Assembly: GCF_036178845.1 (NCBI RefSeq)
Contig: NZ_CP108070.1
Location: 8,928,001-8,992,000 of the forward strand
DNA from: Streptomyces sp. NBC_00271
GTDB lineage: Bacteria > Actinomycetota > Actinomycetes > Streptomycetales > Streptomycetaceae
Reading direction: 5' to 3'
Length of the DNA: 64,000 nt
Numbering within the stretch: the stretch's first letter is position 1; every line of letters begins with the position of its first letter. The notes under the pieces were generated by a model. That model saw only the letters and a program-made list of their open reading frames with translations. It made no database searches and had not been told where the DNA came from. Of this stretch, positions 49,940 to 62,356 are shown piece after piece. The translations under genes and the position numbers were made by a program.

Positions 49940-51493
49940 CTATTGGGTGGCGAACGGGTTGGGAAGCCGCGCCCAGATGTCCCCCGGAGTCTCCGGAGAC
50001 AGCCGCATCAGGCTCAACGCCTTGGTCGGCAGCGGCTCGTCGAGCAGGACCGCCAGGTCCGTGGTGCGCGGCAGATCCCGTACGACGGTCTCCAGGGCCT
50101 CTCGCAGTACGGCCGACGAACCGGCCGTCGCCCCCAGCGTGCCGCCGATCAGCGAGCCGAACATCTTGCGGCGCAGGGTGGTCACATCGTCCGTGACGAT
50201 CCGTCCGGAGAGCGCCGGAGCCGGGATGCCGTGCCGGGCCAGCCGGGCCGGGCTCACGCGGATGTCGGCCAGATCGCGGTAGACGAGCCGGACCGGGGCG
50301 CCGGTGGCGGACAGTACGACCAGGAGGTTCTGGCCGTGCGCCTCCAGGGCCACCCCCAGATCGAGCAGCCGCAGACAGACGGTGAGCGCGAGGCGGGCGA
50401 AGTCGGCCAGCCAGGCGGCCGATCGGGGCAGCTCGGTGGTGGCGAGGGCGGCCACCGGCAGGACGCGCTCGCCCGGGTGCGCGTACACGTCCGGGGACTC
50501 GCGCAGCACCGCCGCCAGGTCGGGGGAGTGGGCCGTGACGGCGCCCAGGGTGCGGGTGACGTGCAGCAGGCCGTCCGTACGGGCCGCCATGTCCTCCGCG
50601 AACGCCGACACCGTCGCCGACGTCTCGATCGAGTAGACCGAGATGTCCCGCACGGAGGAGGTCAGCCGGGCGCTCAGCGCGGTCTTGACGTGCGGTCCGT
50701 CGGGCAGAGCGAGGGTGCGCAGCGACATCAACGGGTGCGCGGGGACGGCCTCCTGGGGCGCGGTTCGCAGTACGTGCGCCAGCTGCCAGGGGTGGACGGG
50801 GATCAGGAAACGGTCCTCGTCCCGCAGCCACTTGGGCCACTCACCCCGGACCAGACAGTCGTCCGCGCCCACCAGGCCGAGTTCCACGACCGGCCGGTGC
50901 TCCGGCCCGTGGGCGAGCTGCTCGGCCACCGAGAACCCGGGCCGGGAGCGGCAGTTGGGGTGATACGGATGTCCGTCGACCACCCGCTGCTCCCACTCCC
51001 AGCTGATCAGGGGCTCATGGTCGACAGCGGGCTGGTTCGCGCGGGACAGGGCCAACGAGGCGACACTGCCGTCGAGCTCGACGGCGAAGGCGGTCGCGTG
51101 CGGTACGCCGAGGGCCGTCATGAGCCGCGCCGGACGCTCGTACACCGTGTTGTCCAGCCGGACCTCGGTGACGTACGAGGTGGTCGCGTACGGATCCGGG
51201 CGCGGGCCGTGCAGCCGGCGGCCGTCGGTGAGGTGGAGCGTGAGCCCGTCGGCCCCCGGTTCGCGGCGCGCGATCCACGGCATCGGCTCGTACGCCAGCG
51301 CACGCCACAGCCGGCTCAGCACGGCCGCCCGGGCGCCGGGGAGCCCGGCCGCGTACGGCGCCGAGAGGGCGGGGCGTACGGCGCTCAGCTCGTCCGCGAG
51401 CGCTGCCTCGGCGTCGGGCGTGGGGGGACGGTGCACGGTCGGGCTCCTTGGGTACGGGGACTGCGCGTCGCGGTCGCCCGCGCCGACAGACAT
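49940..51493 (-). CDS. IucA/IucC-type NIS siderophore synthetase
   Basis: 517 residues. Conserved NIS motifs: DGHPYHPNCRSRPGFS (ATP/citrate region), FLIPVHPWQL, VKTALSARLTSSVRDIS and VALEAHGQNLLVVL, with LVYRDLADIRVS. NIS synthetases adenylate a carboxylate and couple it to an amine or alcohol. In the HPxHP motif the usual Lys four residues on is replaced (NCRSR), which may change nucleotide contacts. It is divergent from a second synthetase with 29 bp between the ATG codons used; GTG 51502 is an alternative. No decarboxylase, hydroxylase or transporter is adjacent. Confidence 0.92.
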   Translation of the reverse strand: MSVGAGDRDAQSPYPRSPTVHRPPTPDAEAALADELSAVRPALSAPYAAGLPGARAAVLSRLWRALAYEPMPWIARREPGADGLTLHLTDGRRLHGPRPDPYATTSYVTEVRLDNTVYERPARLMTALGVPHATAFAVELDGSVASLALSRANQPAVDHEPLISWEWEQRVVDGHPYHPNCRSRPGFSVAEQLAHGPEHRPVVELGLVGADDCLVRGEWPKWLRDEDRFLIPVHPWQLAHVLRTAPQEAVPAHPLMSLRTLALPDGPHVKTALSARLTSSVRDISVYSIETSATVSAFAEDMAARTDGLLHVTRTLGAVTAHSPDLAAVLRESPDVYAHPGERVLPVAALATTELPRSAAWLADFARLALTVCLRLLDLGVALEAHGQNLLVVLSATGAPVRLVYRDLADIRVSPARLARHGIPAPALSGRIVTDDVTTLRRKMFGSLIGGTLGATAGSSAVLREALETVVRDLPRTTDLAVLLDEPLPTKALSLMRLSPETPGDIWARLPNPFATQ

Positions 51494-51522
51494 ACTGATC
51501 ACCAGTGCACCGTATGGAATGA

Positions 51523-53061
51523 ATGGATCGCGTGGACTCCATGCCCCCCAGGCACCTCAGGGACGACATAGAAGAGGCCGCCGACGAGTACGCCGCCGCG
51601 CCTCTGCTCAATTGTCTGCTGCGGGAGGTGGGGGAGCCCGCCGAGGGCTCCGGCGTGTTCCGGCTCCGCTCCAGCGGGCGGCTGCTGCGGGTGCGGGGGA
51701 CGCGCAGGCCCGTGGCGCCCGAGGCGTACGCCGACGGGGCCTGGCACCGGCTCACCCACGCCGAACTGGTCAAACTCACCGCCGAGGAACTGCGCGGATT
51801 CACCGGTCTGTCCGATCCAGAGCTGCCCGCCGAGATGATCGACAGCCGGAGCGCGGTGGCCACACTGCTCGCCGCCCGCCTGCACGCGACGCCGCCCGCG
51901 GACCCGTACATCCGCTCCGAGCAGTCCCTGATCACCGGGCACCCGTACCACCCGGCGCCCAAGGCCCGGGGCGGCGGCCCCGTCGCCGGCTGGCTGCCGT
52001 ACGCGCCCGAGGCTTACGCCCGCTTCCCGCTGGAGTTGCTCGGCGTGCGGGAGGACGCGGTCGTCGAGGAGGGCGACACCTCGGCGCTGGACGACTTCGG
52101 GCCGTCCCCGGAGGGCTACCGGCTGCTTCCGGCCCACCCCTGGCAGCTCGACCTGGTCGGCGCCCGCCCGGAGATCCGGGGCGCCTTCGCGGACGGCCGG
52201 CTGATCCGCCTGGGCCGTACCGTGCGCCCGCTGTGGCCGACGGCCGCCATCCGCACGCTCTACGCCCCCGAGGACGACGTCTTCGTCAAGTTCAGCCTCG
52301 ACGTGCGCATCACCAACGACATCCGTCGGCTGTGGCGCCACGACCTGCTGAAACTGCGTCGTACTGACGAGGCGACAGCCGCCGCGTTCGCGCCTACGAC
52401 TACGACCACGGGGACAGGCACGGGCGCCGCCTGGCTGAGCGACCGCGGCTACCGCACCGCCGACTTCGCCTTCGAAGAACTCGCGGTCCTCGTCCGCGAC
52501 GGGCTGCGCGAGCACGTCGTCCCCGGCGCGACCCCGCTCCTCGCCGCCGCCCTTGTCGAGGGCTTCGAGGGCAGCCCCCTCGACGGTCTCGCCGACCCGT
52601 CCGCCTGGTGGACGGCGTATCTGCGCCAGGTCGTCCCCCCGGCCCTGGAAGCGTTCGCGCGGCACGGAGTCGTCCTGGAGGCGCATCTGCAGAACACGGT
52701 GGTGGCCGTGGACACCGACGGCATCCCCGTGCAGGCGCTGTTCAGGGACGCGGAGGGCGTGAAGCTGCTCACGGACGTGGACCGGGCCGCCGGATGGGAG
52801 CGGCTGGTCTACTGCCTGATCGTCAACAACGTGTCAGAACTCGCCGCCCTGCTCGCGGAGGACCACCCGGGCTGGGACCCGTGGCCCGCCGTACGGACCG
52901 AACTGGCCCACCACGGCCTGCCCGGGATCGCGCACGAGATCGCGGAGTTGCTCACCGCCCCCACGCTCCCCGGCAAGACGAACCTGCTGCTTCGCTGGAC
53001 GGGCGCGGACGGCGCGGACGCCCGCTACCTCCCGCTGCCTAACCCGCTGGCCCGCGCCTAG
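51523..53061 (+). CDS. IucA/IucC-type NIS siderophore synthetase
   Basis: 512 residues. Motifs: ITGHPYHPAPKARGG (with the Lys that the divergent paralogue lacks), YRLLPAHPWQLDLVG, VFVKFSLDVRITNDIRRLWR, VVLEAHLQNTVVAVD and FRDAEGVKLL. ATG 51523 is taken; ATG 51541 is also possible and would leave a little more promoter space. Together with the divergent paralogue it could build a two-step carboxylate siderophore from a shared acid core. The Thr-run TTTTTGTGTG (~287-298) is an insertion in a variable loop. Confidence 0.92.
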   Translation: MDRVDSMPPRHLRDDIEEAADEYAAAPLLNCLLREVGEPAEGSGVFRLRSSGRLLRVRGTRRPVAPEAYADGAWHRLTHAELVKLTAEELRGFTGLSDPELPAEMIDSRSAVATLLAARLHATPPADPYIRSEQSLITGHPYHPAPKARGGGPVAGWLPYAPEAYARFPLELLGVREDAVVEEGDTSALDDFGPSPEGYRLLPAHPWQLDLVGARPEIRGAFADGRLIRLGRTVRPLWPTAAIRTLYAPEDDVFVKFSLDVRITNDIRRLWRHDLLKLRRTDEATAAAFAPTTTTTGTGTGAAWLSDRGYRTADFAFEELAVLVRDGLREHVVPGATPLLAAALVEGFEGSPLDGLADPSAWWTAYLRQVVPPALEAFARHGVVLEAHLQNTVVAVDTDGIPVQALFRDAEGVKLLTDVDRAAGWERLVYCLIVNNVSELAALLAEDHPGWDPWPAVRTELAHHGLPGIAHEIAELLTAPTLPGKTNLLLRWTGADGADARYLPLPNPLARA

Positions 53062-53425: not shown

Positions 53426-55192
53426 ATGGCCAATGAGGACACCGTGTCCCAAGAGTCGGGCAGCGAACGTGTGATCGCCGGCCGCTACAGTCTGCTGTCG
53501 CCCCTCGGTGCGGGCGGCATGGGCACCGTGTGGCGCGCCTACGACAAGGTGCTGCACCGCGAGGTTGCCATCAAGGAGGTCCGGGCGCCTGCCGGACTGG
53601 CGGCGTCCGACATCGACCGGATGTACACGCGGCTGGAGCGCGAGGCGTGGGCTGCGGCCCGGGTGGCGCATCCGAACGTGGTGACCGTCTACGACGTGGC
53701 CATGGAGGAGGGCCGCCCGTGGATCGTGATGGAGTTGGTCCGCGGTCAGTCGCTGGCCGACCTGCTCAAGACCGAGGGCCGGCTCTCCCCGCAACGTGCC
53801 GCTTCCATCGGCCTCGAGGTGCTTGCCGCGCTCCACGCCGCCCACGAGACCGGCGTGCTGCACCGCGACGTGAAACCGGCCAATGTGCTGATAGCCAAGG
53901 ACGGCCGGGTGGTGCTCACCGATTTCGGCATCGCCATGATCGAGGGCGACTCCGCGCTCACCATGACCGGTGAGGTCGTCGGATCGCCCGAGTTCCTGGC
54001 TCCGGAGCGGGCGTTGGGCCGACGGTCCGGGCCCGCGTCGGACCTGTGGTCGCTCGGCGTGCTGCTGTACGCGGCCGTCGAGGCGCGCTCCCCCTTCCGC
54101 CAGAACACCCCGCTCAGCACCCTGCGGGCCATCGTGGACGCGGAGTTGCCGCAAGTCCGCCGGGCCGGCGCTCTCACTCCGGTCATCGAGGGGCTGCTGC
54201 GCAAGGATCCGGACGAACGCCTCACCGCCGAGCAGGCGGAGCAGGACCTGCGGCTCATCGGCCAGGGCGGCATCCCCGACACGGGAGCCGTGCAGCCGTC
54301 CTCCGACTCCCCGACCGTCTCGACGCAGCCCACGACGCGAACGTCTCCCTCGGATCCTGGGGAACAGCCCACGGTCACGCATTCCTTGGCACAGCCGACG
54401 GTCATTGATCCCCGGGCACAGACGACGGTCGCGGAACCTTCGGCGCAGCCCACGGTCGCGGAACCTTCGGCGCAGCCCACGGTCGCGGAACCTTCGGCGC
54501 AGGTGGCGGACACGGATCCCGTGACGCAGCCCACGGTCACGCATTCCCTGGCGCCGGCGCCGGCAGCGGACGCGGATCCGAGTGCCGCGGGAACACCCGC
54601 TTCCTCCGTCCCCCCGGTTGACGCGCGGCGCAGCCGACGCAGCATCGCGCTCGTCGCCACGGGCGTGTCCCTGTGCGTGCTGGCGCTGGCCGGAGTGGGC
54701 TATGCGCTCATGAACGACGGAAACGGAAGCGGAGATCGGAAGAGCGCCGGCAACACCACCGCAGGGGCCGGCTCGGCCTCGAAAAACGCCGAGAATGCCA
54801 CCGCCGCGAGCACACAGGGCGACGACCAAGGCGCCTCCGCCACCCTGGGGGTGCGGGTGACGGTGACGGGTTCGCACACGACGTACTCGGGACAGTGCCC
54901 GCCGCCGAGCGAGCAGGCGCCCACCTTCACGGCGACGTTCACGGTGGACCGGCTCCCGGCCCAATTCTCCTACCGGTGGGTGTCCAAGGACGGCTCGGTG
55001 ACCGATCCGCACTGGAGGACGCTGGTGTTCTCGGACGACGGAGGGCTCAGCAAGCAGGACACGGTGAGCCTGAGCACGTGGGCGGAAGCCGGCAAGCTCG
55101 AGAGCGAGATCGGCGTGGAGCTCAAGGCACCCGTGCAAGGCAAGTCCAACACGGTTCCTCTATCGCTGACTTGCGAGAACGGAACGAACTGA
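53426..55192 (+). CDS. Membrane Ser/Thr protein kinase (PknB-like catalytic domain)
   Basis: 588 residues. The kinase domain (~20-280) has the glycine loop PLGAGGMGTVWRAYD, ATP Lys50 (VAIKEV), catalytic HRDVKPANVLI (146-156), DFGIAMIEG and the APE-like SPEFLAPERA. All catalytic residues are present. A Thr/Pro/Ala linker contains three near-perfect copies of TVAEPSAQP. One membrane helix (~406-429) leads to an extracellular ~110-residue domain with two Cys (GVRVTVTGSHTTYSGQCPPP..SLTCENGTN), no PASTA repeats. It probably senses an extracellular ligand. The FHA-monooxygenase gene follows on the same strand after 270 bp and is a likely substrate or partner. Confidence 0.93.
   Translation: MANEDTVSQESGSERVIAGRYSLLSPLGAGGMGTVWRAYDKVLHREVAIKEVRAPAGLAASDIDRMYTRLEREAWAAARVAHPNVVTVYDVAMEEGRPWIVMELVRGQSLADLLKTEGRLSPQRAASIGLEVLAALHAAHETGVLHRDVKPANVLIAKDGRVVLTDFGIAMIEGDSALTMTGEVVGSPEFLAPERALGRRSGPASDLWSLGVLLYAAVEARSPFRQNTPLSTLRAIVDAELPQVRRAGALTPVIEGLLRKDPDERLTAEQAEQDLRLIGQGGIPDTGAVQPSSDSPTVSTQPTTRTSPSDPGEQPTVTHSLAQPTVIDPRAQTTVAEPSAQPTVAEPSAQPTVAEPSAQVADTDPVTQPTVTHSLAPAPAADADPSAAGTPASSVPPVDARRSRRSIALVATGVSLCVLALAGVGYALMNDGNGSGDRKSAGNTTAGAGSASKNAENATAASTQGDDQGASATLGVRVTVTGSHTTYSGQCPPPSEQAPTFTATFTVDRLPAQFSYRWVSKDGSVTDPHWRTLVFSDDGGLSKQDTVSLSTWAEAGKLESEIGVELKAPVQGKSNTVPLSLTCENGTN
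54425..54502 (+). repeat. 27-bp in-frame tandem repeat in the kinase linker
   Basis: Two full copies and a near-full third of a 27-bp unit (ACGGTCGCGGAACCTTCGGC plus 7 bases) encode TVAEPSAQP. They are nearly identical at DNA level, so the linker length may vary between strains. Confidence 0.85.
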
Positions 55193-55462: not shown

Positions 55463-57388
55463 GTGCCATCGGTCATCCTGGGGCAAACGGGCCCCTTCAC
55501 TGGTCAAAGCGTGGTCCTGAGCGCTGCTCCACTGACGTTCGGTCGCAAGAGCGACAACGACGTCGTGATCGTCAGCGCCAACGCCTCCCGTCTGCACGCC
55601 GAAATCCTCGAGGAGGATGCCGGCTTCGTGCTCTATGACCGCAACAGCCGGAACGGCACCTTCGTCAACGACCAGCGCATCACACGGCATGCACTGCGCT
55701 CCGGCGACCGCATCCGCATCGGTGAGGAAACCTTCCTCTTCGAGTCGGAGGACGCCATCGAGACGATGATGGATCTCTCCCACCTCGACGCACCCCGGGT
55801 GAGCGCCTCCGCGGACCCTGGCGTGCTCAGGGTCACCGTCACCGGCGGCGGCCCGGTGGGCCTCGCCTTCGCGCTGACGCTGGAGAACATGCTGCGCGGG
55901 CGGGTCTCGATCACGGTCTACGAAGGGCGGTGGACCAAGAACGGCTCCACCGTCGTCTGGAAGGACGAGACCCAGGGGAACGTCCGTCGCCAACAGGTCG
56001 TGACCGTCCAGAGCCGGCAGTACCTCGCTCTGCCCGAGGACATACAGTCGGCGCTGTTCGGCGACGTGGGCGACTATTCGGAGATGTGGCCCGTCGGACC
56101 GGACTCCGTGGACGGCCTGCCTCCGCGCAACATCCGGATCGCCTACATCGAGGACCGCCTGCTGGAGTTGGCGAACAAGAACGCCGCGATCCGGCTGGTG
56201 CCGGAGCGGTTCGACCCGTCGGAGCACCAGAGTCGGCTCTCGCAGGAACATGTCCTGGCGATCTGCGAAGGCGGACGATCCCGTACGCGGGAGCACTACG
56301 CCGACCGCTTCGGCGCGGCCGACGCCTCGATCTACTCCCTTGACGGCGACCACCTGCAGGACGTGGTGCTGGGGCTTCGGGTGAAGTCCCCGCTCTCGGA
56401 CCAGATGAGCGTCCTGCTGACCGTGTCGCAGAACAGGTTTCTTCTCAACTCGCTGCGCGGCGAGGGCTTCTTGAACATGCGGCTCACCCGCGAGGAGGCC
56501 CGCAACGTGATCCGTCAGGTCTTCGAGGAGTGCATCGCCGCTCGCCCCTGCGTCATGAGCCGCGAAGAGGACCACGAGTTCCGCTGTCCCACGCACGGAA
56601 CCCTCTTCCTGCCCGCCCTGCTGCGCAGTTCGCCCTTGTGGAAGCGGATCCGGGAGGGACTGAAGCTGTTCGGCGTCCCGGAGAACGACCTCACCGCGAT
56701 CACGTCGTTCCGCCTGGACATGGTGCAGCGCCCGCGGTTCACGGCGCAGCTGAGCCGCCCGACCGCGACGGGCCCCGGCACGTACGGCCTCCTGCTGGGC
56801 GACGCGGCCAACGCCATCCACTTCTGGCCGGGTCGCGGTCTCAACAGCGGTCTCGCCTCCGCCACTTCACTCGCCCGCTCCCTCAGCCGCACATGGCAGG
56901 GAAAGCCGCTGCGCGACGCCGACTTCATCCGGCACGAGGCGGCCATGTCCATGCTTCAGTACCGGCACAAGAGCCGGGCCTGGAACGCCATGGTCACCAC
57001 CGACGAACAGGGCGTCACCCGCGCCATCAAGGACATCATCGCCCGCAGCATGGAACCGGAACCCGGCGACGGCTCCGAACCCGAGCACGCGTCCCTCGAC
57101 GCCCTGCTGGAGCGCATGACCGCGATACGCGAGCGCCTCGCCACCCGTCTCCCCGGTATGCCCACGGACGAGGAACTGCGCAACCACCTCTTGACGCTGG
57201 ACCCGGCCACGCTCCGCACGCTCCAGGAAAGCGGCGCGTGGGACACGCTGATCGTCGGCGGCGAGGAGGCCGACATCGACCTCTTCTACCAGTCGGACTC
57301 CCCCGTCTACGTCCCTCGCCCCACCGACCCGCGCATCGGCCCGCCGGCCCTCATACCGCAGGATTCCGTGCCCTCCAACCCGGTCTGA
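55463..57388 (+). CDS. FHA domain-FAD monooxygenase fusion protein
   Basis: 641 residues. Residues ~1-95 are an FHA phosphothreonine-binding domain: FGRKSDNDVVI with Arg28, SRLHAE (42-47) and YDRNSRNGTFVND (58-70). Then comes an FAD-binding Rossmann motif, RVTVTGGGPVGLAFALTLEN (GGGPVG at 128-133). Later LLLGDAANAIHFWPGRGLNS (GD at 446-447) is the second FAD motif of aromatic-hydroxylase/MICAL-like monooxygenases. A helical C-terminus (~480-641) has no known motif. GTG 55463 follows AAGGAG. The gene follows a Ser/Thr kinase, so phosphorylation-dependent docking or activation is likely. The oxidised substrate (protein or small molecule) is unknown. Confidence 0.88.
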   Translation: MPSVILGQTGPFTGQSVVLSAAPLTFGRKSDNDVVIVSANASRLHAEILEEDAGFVLYDRNSRNGTFVNDQRITRHALRSGDRIRIGEETFLFESEDAIETMMDLSHLDAPRVSASADPGVLRVTVTGGGPVGLAFALTLENMLRGRVSITVYEGRWTKNGSTVVWKDETQGNVRRQQVVTVQSRQYLALPEDIQSALFGDVGDYSEMWPVGPDSVDGLPPRNIRIAYIEDRLLELANKNAAIRLVPERFDPSEHQSRLSQEHVLAICEGGRSRTREHYADRFGAADASIYSLDGDHLQDVVLGLRVKSPLSDQMSVLLTVSQNRFLLNSLRGEGFLNMRLTREEARNVIRQVFEECIAARPCVMSREEDHEFRCPTHGTLFLPALLRSSPLWKRIREGLKLFGVPENDLTAITSFRLDMVQRPRFTAQLSRPTATGPGTYGLLLGDAANAIHFWPGRGLNSGLASATSLARSLSRTWQGKPLRDADFIRHEAAMSMLQYRHKSRAWNAMVTTDEQGVTRAIKDIIARSMEPEPGDGSEPEHASLDALLERMTAIRERLATRLPGMPTDEELRNHLLTLDPATLRTLQESGAWDTLIVGGEEADIDLFYQSDSPVYVPRPTDPRIGPPALIPQDSVPSNPV

Positions 57389-58951: not shown

Positions 58952-59362
58952 TCAGTCGGAGGGCGGCAGCAGTGTGCCCAGCGGCCCGAGGTCGAGGTTG
59001 AGGTCCTCCATGGTCAGTCCGTACTGGGCGCACAGGTCGCTCATGCGGTCGTGGAGGAGCATGAGGGTCGCTCCCAGGCGTTCTTCCTGTTCGTCGGTGA
59101 GGTCTCCTTGGTCGACGCGGTGCAGGGCCTGTCGTTCCATGAGCTGGCGCAGCAGTTCCACGAGGGTGAGGACGAGCTTCATGAGGTCCCGTTCGACGGT
59201 GTCGCGGTCGGAGCTGATCCGCCGGGCCGGAGAACGCGAGCCCTTGCCGACCGGCGGGTGCAGGTCGCGTGGGGCGGCGGGCAGCAGCCGGAAGGCGCGT
59301 GCGGCGGCCTCGGCGACCTCGTCGGCGCGGCGCGGCGGTCGGCTCTCTCCCTCAGTTGTCAT
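58952..59362 (-). CDS. gvpK: Gas vesicle protein GvpK
   Basis: 136 residues. The GvpK core reads DTVERDLMKLVLTLVELLRQ, then LMERQALHRVDQGDLTDEQE, RLGATLMLLHDRMSDLCAQY and GLTMEDLNLDLGPLGTLLPP at the end. GvpK is an accessory protein needed for vesicle assembly. The last gene of the operon; its start overlaps gvpS by 11 bp. Confidence 0.95.
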   Translation of the reverse strand: MTTEGESRPPRRADEVAEAAARAFRLLPAAPRDLHPPVGKGSRSPARRISSDRDTVERDLMKLVLTLVELLRQLMERQALHRVDQGDLTDEQEERLGATLMLLHDRMSDLCAQYGLTMEDLNLDLGPLGTLLPPSD

Positions 59363-59594
59363 GGACGCCGCCTTGTGGCGGATTCGTCCTCGTCCATGGC
59401 GAGGGATTCTGCTCGCTGATGGAAACGATCAGGGCGCGCAGTGAGATACGTACGAGATCGATGTCCGCGATGGACAGCACAACGTCACCGGTGAGGACGA
59501 CCCCACCGCTCAGAAGTCGGTCCAACAGATCGATGAGAGCGACCTGCCGCTGAGGCAGGCGCTCTGCCTCCGGCGGAGGGCCAGGCGTGCTCAC
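59352..59594 (-). CDS. gvpS: Gas vesicle protein GvpS (GvpA family)
   Basis: 80 residues. A GvpA-fold protein: QVALIDLLDRLLSGGVVLTG, DVVLSIADIDLVRISLRALI. GvpS/GvpJ are minor shell or cap proteins that help nucleate vesicles. Overlaps gvpL by 4 bp upstream and gvpK by 11 bp downstream, so tight translational coupling is expected. Confidence 0.92.
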   Translation of the reverse strand: MSTPGPPPEAERLPQRQVALIDLLDRLLSGGVVLTGDVVLSIADIDLVRISLRALIVSISEQNPSPWTRTNPPQGGVHDN

Positions 59595-60418
59595 GGAGGT
59601 GCTCCCTCCGCAGCTGCAGCACCGCCGGATTCATCGAATGGCATGGCGAAGGAGTACGGAGCCCAGGGGCCGGTGGCTTCGACCCGTACCCCGTCCAGCC
59701 CTTCAGCGGCATGTGTCACGTCGGCCAGGAAGTCGTCGCATCGCTTCAGGGGCACAAGGTACGCGTCGTTGACGACGTTCTCGCCGACGGCGCCGGCCGT
59801 GTCGGCGAGAAGACCTTGCTGTACGCGATGGCGGACGCGGTCGGAGGCGTGCTTGCGGCCCGCGGCCTCCACCCGCTCGGCGGCTTTCTGCGCCGCCTGG
59901 TACACGGTGTCGCGAACACTTTGCTGTTGCCGGCGGTTACGCAGGTAGGCGCGCCCGGGGGTCAGCTCTGCCGCGGGAACGGTCGGCTCCGTGAGGGCCG
60001 TAGCCGATTCGACGTAGATCTTGACACCCCATTCGACATGTTCGGAGAGCAGAGCCAGGCGCTCCGCGAACATGGTCCGCCCGGCTTCCAGCATCTCCCG
60101 AGCCCGGTTGTCGTCGAGATAGACGGTCGCCAGGCGCAGCGGAAGCACGGTGGTGCGCTCGCCCAAGGCCTCGATGACGCCGTGGTGAGCACGGGCCACC
60201 GCCTCCAGCCACTCCAGGTCCTCGAGATGCTGTTTGAGAGCGTCCTCCTGGAAGTCCTGTCCGGGCACATGGCTCACCACGAGCCCCAGCTGATCGTCAC
60301 CGGAGTCGGTGACGAGGCTGACCGGAGAGTCGGCGACGCCTCGGAGCGGCGCGGTTGCCTCCCGCAGTCCTTCGGCGTTGCGTACCACCGCATACGCGTA
60401 TGTCAGCAGGTCACTCAT
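59591..60418 (-). CDS. gvpL: Gas vesicle protein GvpL (GvpL/GvpF family)
   Basis: 275 residues. YAYAVVRNAEGL at the start, the central EALGERTTVLPLRLATVY (the family's 'lPmrfgtvf' signature) and WAPYSFA near the end place it in GvpL/F. These alpha/beta accessory proteins help GvpA polymerise. Starts 8 bp inside the gvpJ end. Confidence 0.92.
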   Translation of the reverse strand: MSDLLTYAYAVVRNAEGLREATAPLRGVADSPVSLVTDSGDDQLGLVVSHVPGQDFQEDALKQHLEDLEWLEAVARAHHGVIEALGERTTVLPLRLATVYLDDNRAREMLEAGRTMFAERLALLSEHVEWGVKIYVESATALTEPTVPAAELTPGRAYLRNRRQQQSVRDTVYQAAQKAAERVEAAGRKHASDRVRHRVQQGLLADTAGAVGENVVNDAYLVPLKRCDDFLADVTHAAEGLDGVRVEATGPWAPYSFAMPFDESGGAAAAEGAPP

Positions 60419-60818
60419 CGCGAGCACTTCCCCGGCGATGGCTGCGCGTGTCCCGGGGCGCTTCCTCCTTCGCGGGGAGGGCGTTGGCCTGGCGGATGGC
60501 ATCGATCTCGGCCCGCAACCGGCGGTTCTCCTCGGCCAGTGACTGTTCACCCCTGCTCCGAGAGGACAGCGAGGGGTCGTGCTCCCACCAGTCGATGCCC
60601 ATTTCCTTCGCTTTGTCGACGGAGGCGACCAGGAGGCGCAGCTTGATGGTCAACAGCTCGATGTCGAGAAGGTTGATCTGTATGTCGCCTGCGATGACGA
60701 TGCCCTTGTCGAGAACCCGTTCAAGGATGTCGGCGAGATTCGCGGAGGATCCCTGCCCGTAGGGGGGCGCTGCTCGGGACGGATAGGAACCAAGCCTGTT
60801 GGCCAGGGGTTCAGTCAC
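60411..60818 (-). CDS. gvpJ: Gas vesicle protein GvpJ (GvpA family)
   Basis: 135 residues. The GvpA-like core LADILERVLDKGIVIAGDIQ, INLLDIELLTIKLRLLVASV is followed by an Arg/Glu-rich tail (ENRRLRAEIDAIRQANALPA). GvpJ nucleates or caps the vesicle cone. It is 39 bp from gvpG. In S. coelicolor two further genes usually sit at this spot (gvpY/gvpZ, from memory); they are absent here. Confidence 0.9.
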   Translation of the reverse strand: MTEPLANRLGSYPSRAAPPYGQGSSANLADILERVLDKGIVIAGDIQINLLDIELLTIKLRLLVASVDKAKEMGIDWWEHDPSLSSRSRGEQSLAEENRRLRAEIDAIRQANALPAKEEAPRDTRSHRRGSARDE

Positions 60819-60857
60819 GGTTGCGGCCTCGAATTCCCTCGTGCCGGATCAGGAGTG

Positions 60858-61100
60858 TCAGCCCTGCCGATAGGCACGGATCTCCTCCAGCCGGTCGAGC
60901 AGTTCGTCCTCGCGCCGGTCGAACGTCTCCTCGTCGATGTCGCCTGCGACGAAGAGACGTTCGAGCTCGGCGAGTTCGCGGTGCACCGGTGCGGGGTCGT
61001 AGTACTGGTTCTCGGCTTCCTCCCGGACGCGCTCCACGACCCATACGACGCCGCGCACGGGCGCCAGGGGAAGGGTGACGAGCTGTGTGAGCAGGCCCAT
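60858..61100 (-). CDS. gvpG: Gas vesicle protein GvpG
   Basis: 80 residues. MGLLTQLVTLPLAPVRGVVW then VVERVREEAENQYYDPAPVH is GvpG's opening, and VAGDIDEETFDRREDELLDR its C-terminal helix. GvpG interacts with GvpF and GvpA during assembly. ATG 61100 is 10 bp after the gvpF stop. Confidence 0.95.
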   Translation of the reverse strand: MGLLTQLVTLPLAPVRGVVWVVERVREEAENQYYDPAPVHRELAELERLFVAGDIDEETFDRREDELLDRLEEIRAYRQG

Positions 61101-61110
61101 GAGAACTCCT

Positions 61111-61824
61111 TCAGACGAAGCTGTAGGGGGGCAGGGGGCCGTTGAGCCGGAAGTCGAAGTCGTCGCCCATCTGGTGGGCGACGCTCAACTCCGAGGTGAC
61201 GAATGCCTCTTCCTGCTCCTCGGTCACCAGGAACGACACGTTGATGAAGTCCGAACCCGTCGGCTGGGATGTTTCAAGCGTCCGGGCGAAGGGGCGCAGT
61301 GCTTCGACCACACCCGCCGCCAGTGCCTCTTGCCGTGCCTGCACCTCTTGGGCGACCAGCTCACCGAGTTGCAGTGACGCGTCGGGGTCGGCGGTGCCGC
61401 CGCGGATCTCTTCATTGAGTTCTCGCGCCACGTCCGACTCCTGCAGGATCTGCCGCAGCAGCGCGTCTTCGTCCTGCGATGCTTTGAGGTGGTACTCGGT
61501 GCACCCCTCCAGTACTTGAAGCCTGTCCGTATAGTCCGCGGCATTCTGCTCCAGAGCCAGCTGGATGGCCTCGTCGTTCTCGGCGATGAGGCCGAACCGC
61601 ATGGGGAGCACGGTGCCGTCAGCCATGAGGCGCTTCTGCACTTCCTGGTGGGCGATGATGTCGCGACGCTTGGGGCGTAGATCCTCTGGCGCGTCGCTGA
61701 CCACGGCGCACAGCGGTCCCGCCGTCACTGCCCGCAGGTCCGCCGGTGACTCACCGACTCCGCTGAGACCGTCGAGGCGGAGCGGGTGCTGCTTGTCGGT
61801 GATGGAGTAGATGTATACGGCCAT
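61111..61824 (-). CDS. gvpF: Gas vesicle protein GvpF
   Basis: 237 residues. VYIYSITDKQHPL at the start, GTVLPMRFGLIAENDEAIQ (family signature) and NVSFLVTEEQEEAF then NGPLPPYSFV at the end. GvpF belongs to the same family as gvpL and binds GvpA early in assembly. 27 bp downstream of gvpA's stop. Confidence 0.95.
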   Translation of the reverse strand: MAVYIYSITDKQHPLRLDGLSGVGESPADLRAVTAGPLCAVVSDAPEDLRPKRRDIIAHQEVQKRLMADGTVLPMRFGLIAENDEAIQLALEQNAADYTDRLQVLEGCTEYHLKASQDEDALLRQILQESDVARELNEEIRGGTADPDASLQLGELVAQEVQARQEALAAGVVEALRPFARTLETSQPTGSDFINVSFLVTEEQEEAFVTSELSVAHQMGDDFDFRLNGPLPPYSFV

Positions 61825-61851
61825 GGCTCATTCCTTCTCGCCGGGCGAGCC

Positions 61852-62328
61852 TTATTCGCGCTCACGTCGGGAGGTGCGCCGAGCCGGCCGCCGTCGCCTC
61901 TCCACGGGTTCCTTTTCCTTGCCCTCGTCTTCCTCCTCGGCCTCCTCCTCTTCGCTGTCGTCACGGCTGGTGATCCCCTTGAGGGAATCGGTGACCGCTT
62001 CCGCCGCGCCGGAGAGGGCCCCCTTGGATTTGCCCTTGGCTCCGCTCTCCATCGTGTCTCCGACGATGTCGGTCAACTGGGCGGGTGCCTTCCTCCCCGT
62101 CTCGAGGTCGAGACGGTTGCATGCTTCGGCGAAACGCAAATAGGTGTCGACACTGGCCACGACAATACGAGCGTCGATCTTGAGGATTTCGATCCCCACC
62201 AGTGACACGCGGACGAAGACATCGATGACAAGCCCGCGATCGAGAATGAGTTCCAAGACGTCGTAGAGGCTGGTGCCACCGCCACCACCGCGCGCGACAG
62301 CGCCTCCACTCTGTGGCACCACCGTCAT
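61852..62328 (-). CDS. gvpA: Gas vesicle structural protein GvpA with charged tail
   Basis: 158 residues. The GvpA core (about 20-75) reads [49 protein letters not shown], the amphipathic ribbed-shell fold. The remaining ~80 residues are a highly charged tail, first acidic ([16 protein letters not shown]) then basic ([15 protein letters not shown]), much longer than cyanobacterial GvpA (~70). ATG 62328 follows GGGAGGC. Such tails are seen in Streptomyces gvpA; true floating vesicles have rarely been seen there. Confidence 0.9.
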
Positions 62329-62356
62329 GGTGCCTCCCTTCATGGCCGTTGCGGCC

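What the first reader, a model, noticed from the sequence alone, without database searches (positions are those of the whole stretch)
55463..57388. FHA phosphothreonine-binding domain fused to a flavin monooxygenase
Seen: complete FHA signature (Arg28, SRLHAE, NSRNGTFVN), then two FAD motifs of aromatic-hydroxylase/MICAL type in one chain, plus an unassigned helical C-terminus. A membrane Ser/Thr kinase gene precedes it on the same strand. I know of no characterised system of this kind. Inferred: the kinase recruits or switches a redox enzyme at the membrane, perhaps for protein oxidation or a secreted metabolite.
Basis: partly seen in the sequence, partly recalled or inferred. Interest (0 to 1): 0.8.

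Follow-up and report, generated by a model that had tools for sequence, protein, structure and literature searches.

The report
Kinase-paired FHA flavin monooxygenase cassette
A soil bacterium carries a gene for a flavin enzyme with a built-in reader of protein phosphorylation; in its branch of relatives the gene sits beside one particular membrane kinase gene while the other neighbours change, which suggests a kinase-controlled oxidation enzyme that appears not to have been described.

The parts
53426..55192 (+). Membrane Ser/Thr protein kinase gene (588 aa); partner gene of the cassette
   Evidence: PF00069 E 1e-49; same kinase family (65-100% identity to the window's catalytic domain, the window included) upstream of 50 of 53 distinct window-clade FMO genes with room
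53486..54244 (+). Kinase catalytic domain (residues 21-273)
   Evidence: Pfam alignment range
54638..54706 (+). Probable single transmembrane segment of the kinase (about residues 405-427)
   Evidence: hydrophobic stretch read by eye; no TM predictor available
55463..57388 (+). FHA-flavin monooxygenase gene (641 aa, GTG start)
55469..55747 (+). FHA domain (residues 3-95)
   Evidence: PF00498 7.7e-19; model resembles GarA/OdhI FHA, TMt 0.77-0.94 in the rows shown; pThr-pocket residues 118 of 118
55760..55774 (+). Linker motif E100-T101-x-x-D104, candidate phosphothreonine site in a disordered linker
   Evidence: T101 in 56 of 56 window-clade and 56 of 61 sister-group sequences with a letter there; D104 53 of 56 and 43 of 61; pLDDT below 50 at 99-116. 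Function inferred
55817..57289 (+). Group-A flavin monooxygenase part (residues 119-609)
55844..55864 (+). FAD motif 1 GGGPVGL (128-134)
   Evidence: 119 of 120
56264..56290 (+). DG-like motif CEGGRSRTR (268-276)
   Evidence: strict form in 91 of 120; motif name recalled
56798..56851 (+). FAD motif GDAANAIHFWPGRGLNSG (446-463)
   Evidence: 119 of 120
56512..56513 (+). Place of a clean in-frame lack of five residues, unique to the window copy
   Evidence: five residues present in the other 119 of 120 loci and in P0001, 98% identical

Best explanation
The two genes form a portable kinase/effector cassette. The membrane kinase senses a signal outside the cell and phosphorylates Thr residues, either on itself (activation loop or juxtamembrane linker) or on T101 of its partner. 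The FHA domain reads that phosphothreonine and so recruits, dimerises or conformationally switches the attached group-A FAD/NAD(P)H monooxygenase. Shown: domains, predicted fold, conserved pocket, gene pairing, co-variation, presence on plasmids, and the alternative fusions. Inferred: that the kinase senses an outside signal, that it makes the bound phosphothreonine, that T101 is a site (cis binding looks sterically hard because FHA termini lie opposite the pocket, recalled, so trans binding is favoured), that binding changes enzyme activity, and that the substrate is one conserved small molecule or macromolecule rather than a cluster-specific metabolite.
For: Kinase upstream of the gene in 31 of 33 window-clade representatives at 90% clustering against 1 of 35 in the sister group (Fisher 1e-15); the chance rate is about 1-2%, from 46 Pkinase places in 12.28 Mb (own arithmetic). 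Both codirectional (37) and divergent (10 to 13, by method) layouts occur, so adjacency outlived inversion. Kinase and FMO distances correlate, rho 0.64, n 47, best of 999 permutations 0.16. Of seven Streptomyces plasmid records I opened six; all six keep the pair, the kinases being 65-72% identical to the window's, and two have transposase genes on both sides. FHA pocket 118 of 118. FHA sits on opposite ends of the same enzyme in different branches (274 N-terminal, 12 C-terminal, of 333 listed), which suggests that phospho-reading was added more than once. T101 conserved in a disordered linker. The one window-clade locus whose enzyme has no FHA (L212 and L130, one genome, S. fumigatiscleroticus) has no kinase gene in the fetched DNA either.
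Against: The sister group keeps FHA and T101 with no adjacent kinase, so the kinase is not needed for the FHA to be kept; the Nonomuraea record H38 has no similar kinase within 8 kb. Two window-clade loci (L120, L185) have FHA but no kinase in the fetched DNA. Only 2 of 7 positions that separate the clades lie in the FHA, neither in the pocket, so there is no sign of FHA retuning to the kinase. A T-[VIM]-x-[DE] motif in the kinase linker is enriched (29 against 7.1 expected) but present in only 16 of 47 kinases. All 12 C-terminal FHAs lack the Asn of the usual N-G (by eye). Some relatives have Ser in place of T101 (P0291, P0312, P0332). Correlated distances can reflect shared travel alone. No substrate or activity evidence.
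Confidence: 0.6

Rival explanations
1. GarA/OdhI-like switch: the FHA binds its protein partner (or the enzyme part itself) without phosphorylation, and phosphorylation of T101 by any cellular kinase turns that binding off; the neighbouring kinase is a later, clade-specific upgrade.
For: GarA/OdhI are the best FHA matches of the models. T101 in an E-T context resembles the ETTS switch motif described for GarA (PMC5448819 passages). T101 is kept in the sister group without a kinase.
Against: GarA's site lies in an N-terminal extension; T101 lies directly C-terminal of the FHA, too close for easy cis binding (recalled geometry). No partner is known.
Confidence: 0.2
2. Ordinary tailoring hydroxylase for a secondary metabolite; FHA and kinase are incidental.
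For: Folds listed include KMO, PHBH, PqsL, VioD and tetracycline destructases; by eye many copies lie towards the ends of single-contig chromosomes, and some on linear plasmids.
Against: No recurrent biosynthetic neighbour seen across 57 window-clade loci: apart from the kinase no neighbour cluster is in more than 6. FMO core 54-63% identical to the window's in Anaerolineae, Solirubrobacteraceae and unnamed metagenome proteins, unusually tight for tailoring enzymes (recalled). FHA pocket invariant.
Confidence: 0.12
3. Effector of a stress or phage-conflict module: a kinase/FHA or lectin-like (FGE/FGS) sensor triggers a redox-damaging enzyme.
For: FGE-sulfatase (FGS) fusion in 2 relatives. FGS, FHA and kinases are described as parts of conflict systems (passages of PMC7159879 and PMC8195603). 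Two-gene cassette with variable flanks.
Against: The FMO has no hit in PADLOC at E 0.01; the kinase's hits there, mostly PD-T4-6 models, look like general kinase similarity (inference). Neither paper has the words monooxygenase or flavin in its main text. The one scan of viral contigs found no relative.
Confidence: 0.08

Closest known systems
GarA / OdhI (actinobacterial FHA regulators of 2-oxoglutarate dehydrogenase)
   Same: FHA fold, 29-31% identity in the aligned rows; kinase-controlled in the literature (PMC5448819 passages); a conserved Thr in a flexible stretch beside the FHA
   Different: Stand-alone small regulators; here the FHA is fused to the flavoenzyme and the Thr is C-terminal of the FHA
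Kinase-linked FHA effectors of actinobacteria: EmbR/PknH, Rv1747/PknF, FhaA and FhaB with PknA/PknB (pairings recalled, Rv1747/PknF also in a reference title seen)
   Same: FHA protein paired with a membrane Ser/Thr kinase; EmbR and Rv1747 are the two best PDB sequence hits to this FHA
   Different: Their effectors are a transcription factor, an ABC transporter and scaffolds, none an oxidoreductase (recalled)
Group-A flavoprotein monooxygenases (PHBH, KMO, UbiH/UbiI, PqsL, VioD)
   Different: No phosphopeptide-binding domain (recalled); no flavoenzyme row above 17% identity was shown
MICAL actin-oxidising monooxygenases
   Same: PHBH-type FAD module within a signalling protein (recalled); MICAL1 8y6k appeared at rank 30 with the poor first model
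   Different: No CH domain found; not among the 50 rows shown for the good model, which excludes nothing

Membership tests
FHA domain (PF00498) | Profile match above the curated cut-off | tested here: met
   68.3 bits against 20.7
FHA domain (PF00498) | pThr-pocket Arg, Ser, His/Asn conserved in orthologues | tested here: met
   R28, S42, H45, S62, N64, G65 in 118 of 118 scored of 120
FHA domain (PF00498) | Binds phosphothreonine peptides | not testable with these tools
   needs binding assay
Group-A flavoprotein monooxygenase | PHBH-type fold | tested here: met
Group-A flavoprotein monooxygenase | GxGxxG-type and GD FAD motifs | tested here: met
   119 of 120 each
Group-A flavoprotein monooxygenase | DG motif | tested here: inconclusive
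   DG-like form with Glu for Asp in the window; strict pattern in 91 of 120
Group-A flavoprotein monooxygenase | Binds FAD, uses NAD(P)H, oxygenates a substrate | not testable with these tools
   no assay
MICAL | FMO module with calponin-homology/LIM domains | tested here: not met
   no such Pfam domain listed at E up to 1
MICAL | MICAL-type FMO fold | tested here: inconclusive
   rank 30 with the poor model, not among rows shown for the good one
GarA/OdhI-type phospho-switch | Conserved Thr in a flexible segment next to the FHA | tested here: met
   T101 112 of 117 with a letter; pLDDT below 50 there; but C-terminal of the FHA, not N-terminal
GarA/OdhI-type phospho-switch | Thr is phosphorylated and bound by the FHA | not testable with these tools
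   needs phosphoproteomics and NMR/ITC
Kinase-FHA effector pair | Conserved genomic linkage of kinase and FHA protein | tested here: met
   31 of 33 window-clade representatives; sister group 1 of 35, so clade-limited
Known anti-phage defence systems (PADLOC) | Specific model match for the flavoenzyme | tested here: not met
   0 families at E 0.01 for the FHA-FMO

The most novel reading that the evidence does not exclude
A phylum-spanning family of phospho-gated flavin oxygenases, in which one strongly conserved enzyme has been fitted repeatedly with signal-reading modules (FHA at either end, or an FGE/C-type-lectin-like domain) and in Streptomyces was turned into a mobile two-gene kinase-oxygenase cassette: signal transduction whose direct output is an oxygenation reaction on a conserved cellular target, a bacterial counterpart in logic of MICAL.
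Probability: 0.25. Interest if true: 0.85.

Novelty: new variant of a known kind. Interest (0 to 1): 0.62.

Why it matters
Bacterial Ser/Thr kinases far outnumber their known outputs (recalled). A kinase travelling with one FHA-carrying enzyme gives a kinase-effector pair that can be purified and tested directly, and the effector would be of a new kind, an FAD monooxygenase. Because the enzyme core is strongly conserved over distant lineages and exists with and without FHA, its substrate should be findable by comparing forms. If phosphorylation gates oxygenation, it would link membrane signalling to redox chemistry without a transcription factor.

Tried and rejected
Metabolite-cluster reading: neighbour clustering over 57 window-clade and 63 sister-group loci (four genes each side) showed no recurring biosynthetic partner. 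Apart from the kinase (42 of 57 in this call, which uses crude gene calling and undercounts) the largest cluster was in 6 of 57; in the sister group the largest was in 8 of 63, a gene directly downstream (example locus L226, Microbispora rosea), and a cluster whose example reads as a kinase was in 5 of 63, in mixed positions. A recount on both sides within 3 kb found no downstream kinase in the 57 and one in the 63 (L243, which has one on each side).

First AlphaFold model, from 37 close homologues, was poor (pLDDT 60.7); its matches are used only for the FHA. The second, from 105, was good (86.9).

Kinase-linker motif as general FHA ligand: enriched overall, but in 16 of 47 kinases only and inflated by repeats; rejected as general. 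Pocket-flanking FHA residues as kinase-specific signature: suggested by 61 loci, not upheld at the 85% cut with 120. Viral origin: 63 stretches matched a pattern in viral contigs, none encodes a relative. Weak sequence hits in other Actinomycetota genomes proved, for the nine loci I fetched, to be proteins that look like ordinary group-A hydroxylases (by eye). G268 holds only two short stretches at 66-88% identity, perhaps a decayed copy; not followed. Whole-protein genome searches ring in nearly all genomes through the FHA alone (61 of 61, 392 of 394); only matches over the enzyme were counted (7 of 61, one of them partial; 16 of 394). MICAL1 was not among the rows shown for the good model.

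Paper searches: ten ran. Nine bore on this; five of these returned no paper and none of the listed titles is on an FHA-monooxygenase fusion. The tenth looked for GarA/OdhI. Seen: passages only of PMC1262709, PMC6213207, PMC7159879, PMC8195603, PMC5448819; the other titles as search listings.

Full report

Conservation. FHA residues R28, S42, H45, S62, N64 and G65 are present in 118 of 118 with a letter; L212 and L102 have none there. FAD motifs GGGPVGL and GDAANxIHFWPGRGLNSG are in 119 of 120 each.

Distribution. The gene is accessory. Strong matches over the enzyme occur in 7 of 61 genus genomes, one of them partial, 58 of 391 order genomes (66 rang at E 0.001, 8 of them only weakly), 4 of 296 phylum genomes (3 more are weak) and 16 of 394 class genomes. 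Protein searches extend the enzyme to Anaerolineae, Cocleimonas and Solirubrobacteraceae MAGs (names given by the sources). It is on seven Streptomyces plasmid records, and on one 11.9 Mb Nonomuraea record filed under plasmids.

The kinase. In the window's clade (about 73% identity or more) the gene directly upstream is a Ser/Thr kinase of one family, 65-100% identical to the window's over the catalytic domain. By tblastn, 50 of 53 distinct loci with room have it within 3 kb, 37 codirectional and 13 divergent; 4 more loci had no room. In the sister group 4 of 62 do, two of them (L207, L076) being window-clade members that fell just under the cut. At 90% clustering the figures are 31 of 33 and 1 of 35. 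An ORF-based count gave 47 of 52 and 3 of 62. Counting the downstream side too adds none to the window's clade and, in the sister group, one on a locus already counted (L243). On the enzyme tree the kinase label changes 5 times among 115 loci, against about 38 when shuffled. Kinase and enzyme distances correlate (rho 0.64, n 47; best of 999 permutations 0.16); this shows that they travel together, not that they touch. Flanking genes differ from genome to genome. Of the seven Streptomyces plasmid records I opened six (two are of one species and much alike): the kinase, 65-72% identical to the window's, is next to the FHA gene each time, five codirectional and one divergent. In two of them (NZ_CP109428, NZ_CP108842) transposase genes lie on both sides. 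The Nonomuraea record, of the sister group, has no similar kinase within 8 kb. I read this as a portable two-gene unit. In the one window-clade locus whose enzyme lacks the FHA (S. fumigatiscleroticus, L212 and L130, the same genome), no kinase was found either; two others (L120, L185) have the FHA without a kinase.

Other architectures. Among 333 proteins listed by three searches, which favour near relatives and are not a random sample, a profile scan found the FHA N-terminal in 274, C-terminal in 12 and absent in 47; many of the last begin at the enzyme's first residues, perhaps cut by contig edges, and one (P0219) has a partial N-terminal FHA by Pfam. Two of the 47 (P0250, P0259) carry a C-terminal FGE-sulfatase domain (1e-38 and 6e-38). 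In a tree of 82 enzyme cores, C-terminal and N-terminal FHA forms lie on different sides of the midpoint; bare forms occur on both sides (one starred clade of 10 includes the Anaerolineae protein), and the two FGE forms one on each side. The labels need 13 changes against 33 shuffled. The simplest reading is separate fusion at the two ends. The tree is a quick one with open forks, and the dividing branches have support 92, not starred. The C-terminal FHAs keep G-R and S-x-x-H but lack the Asn of N-G (by eye).

A candidate switch site. Between FHA and enzyme lies a linker with pLDDT below 50 (99-116), yet T101 is Thr in 56 of 56 window-clade and 56 of 61 sister-group sequences, preceded by Glu in 56 of 56 and 49 of 61 and followed at +3 by Asp in 53 of 56 and 43 of 61. 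E-T-x-x-D fits a recalled FHA preference (pT-x-x-D). The parallel is GarA's ETTS motif in its unstructured N-terminal extension (PMC5448819 passages). Because T101 is a few residues from the FHA C-terminus, binding in trans is more likely than in cis (inference). Against: some relatives have Ser there, and the sister group conserves it without an adjacent kinase.

Mechanism. I judge it most likely (0.6) that the kinase and the FHA-enzyme are a signal-to-oxygenation pair, with FHA binding of a phosphothreonine on the kinase or on the partner's T101 as the control step. Only linkage and conservation are shown. Substrate and direction of control are open.

Novelty. FHA proteins paired with Ser/Thr kinases are a known kind; an FAD monooxygenase as the FHA-borne effector is, as far as nine searches of the held literature show, undescribed. 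Most papers of subscription journals are not held. Two conflict-system papers mention FHA and FGS domains but neither 'monooxygenase' nor 'flavin'. I file it as a new variant of a known kind.

A caution about this copy. The window's protein alone among 120 lacks five residues after position 350, a clean in-frame gap relative to S. olivochromogenes. Two of the five (G and D) are nearly invariant even in the 105-member set. Conclusions about the family stand; the activity of this copy may not.

Noticed in passing
window 56512-56513 (protein position 350/351): The window copy lacks five near-invariant residues that the other 119 of 120 loci have; possibly an impaired allele or an assembly artefact.
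   Followed up: partly
window 49940-51502 (-) and 51523-53061 (+): Two divergent IucA/IucC-FhuF type NIS siderophore synthetase genes lie directly upstream of the kinase; they were not seen as recurring neighbours.
   Followed up: partly
window 58952-62343 (-): Gas vesicle gene group (GvpK, two GvpL/GvpF, two Gas_vesicle-family proteins) downstream.
   Followed up: no
P0250 and P0259 (no window coordinates): The same flavoenzyme carries a C-terminal FGE-sulfatase (C-type lectin-like) domain in two listed proteins, a module reported in diversity-generating and conflict systems.
   Followed up: partly
L258 (NZ_CP109428.1 164341-178254) and L260 (NZ_CP108842.1 439884-451785): The kinase/FHA-FMO pair on linear plasmids lies between transposase genes (IS5 on both sides; IS110 upstream and IS3 downstream).
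   Followed up: partly
window 54380-54540: Tandem repeat encoding QPTVAEPSA-like units in the kinase juxtamembrane linker; its sequence and length differ even from the 98% identical neighbour strain (L170).
   Followed up: partly
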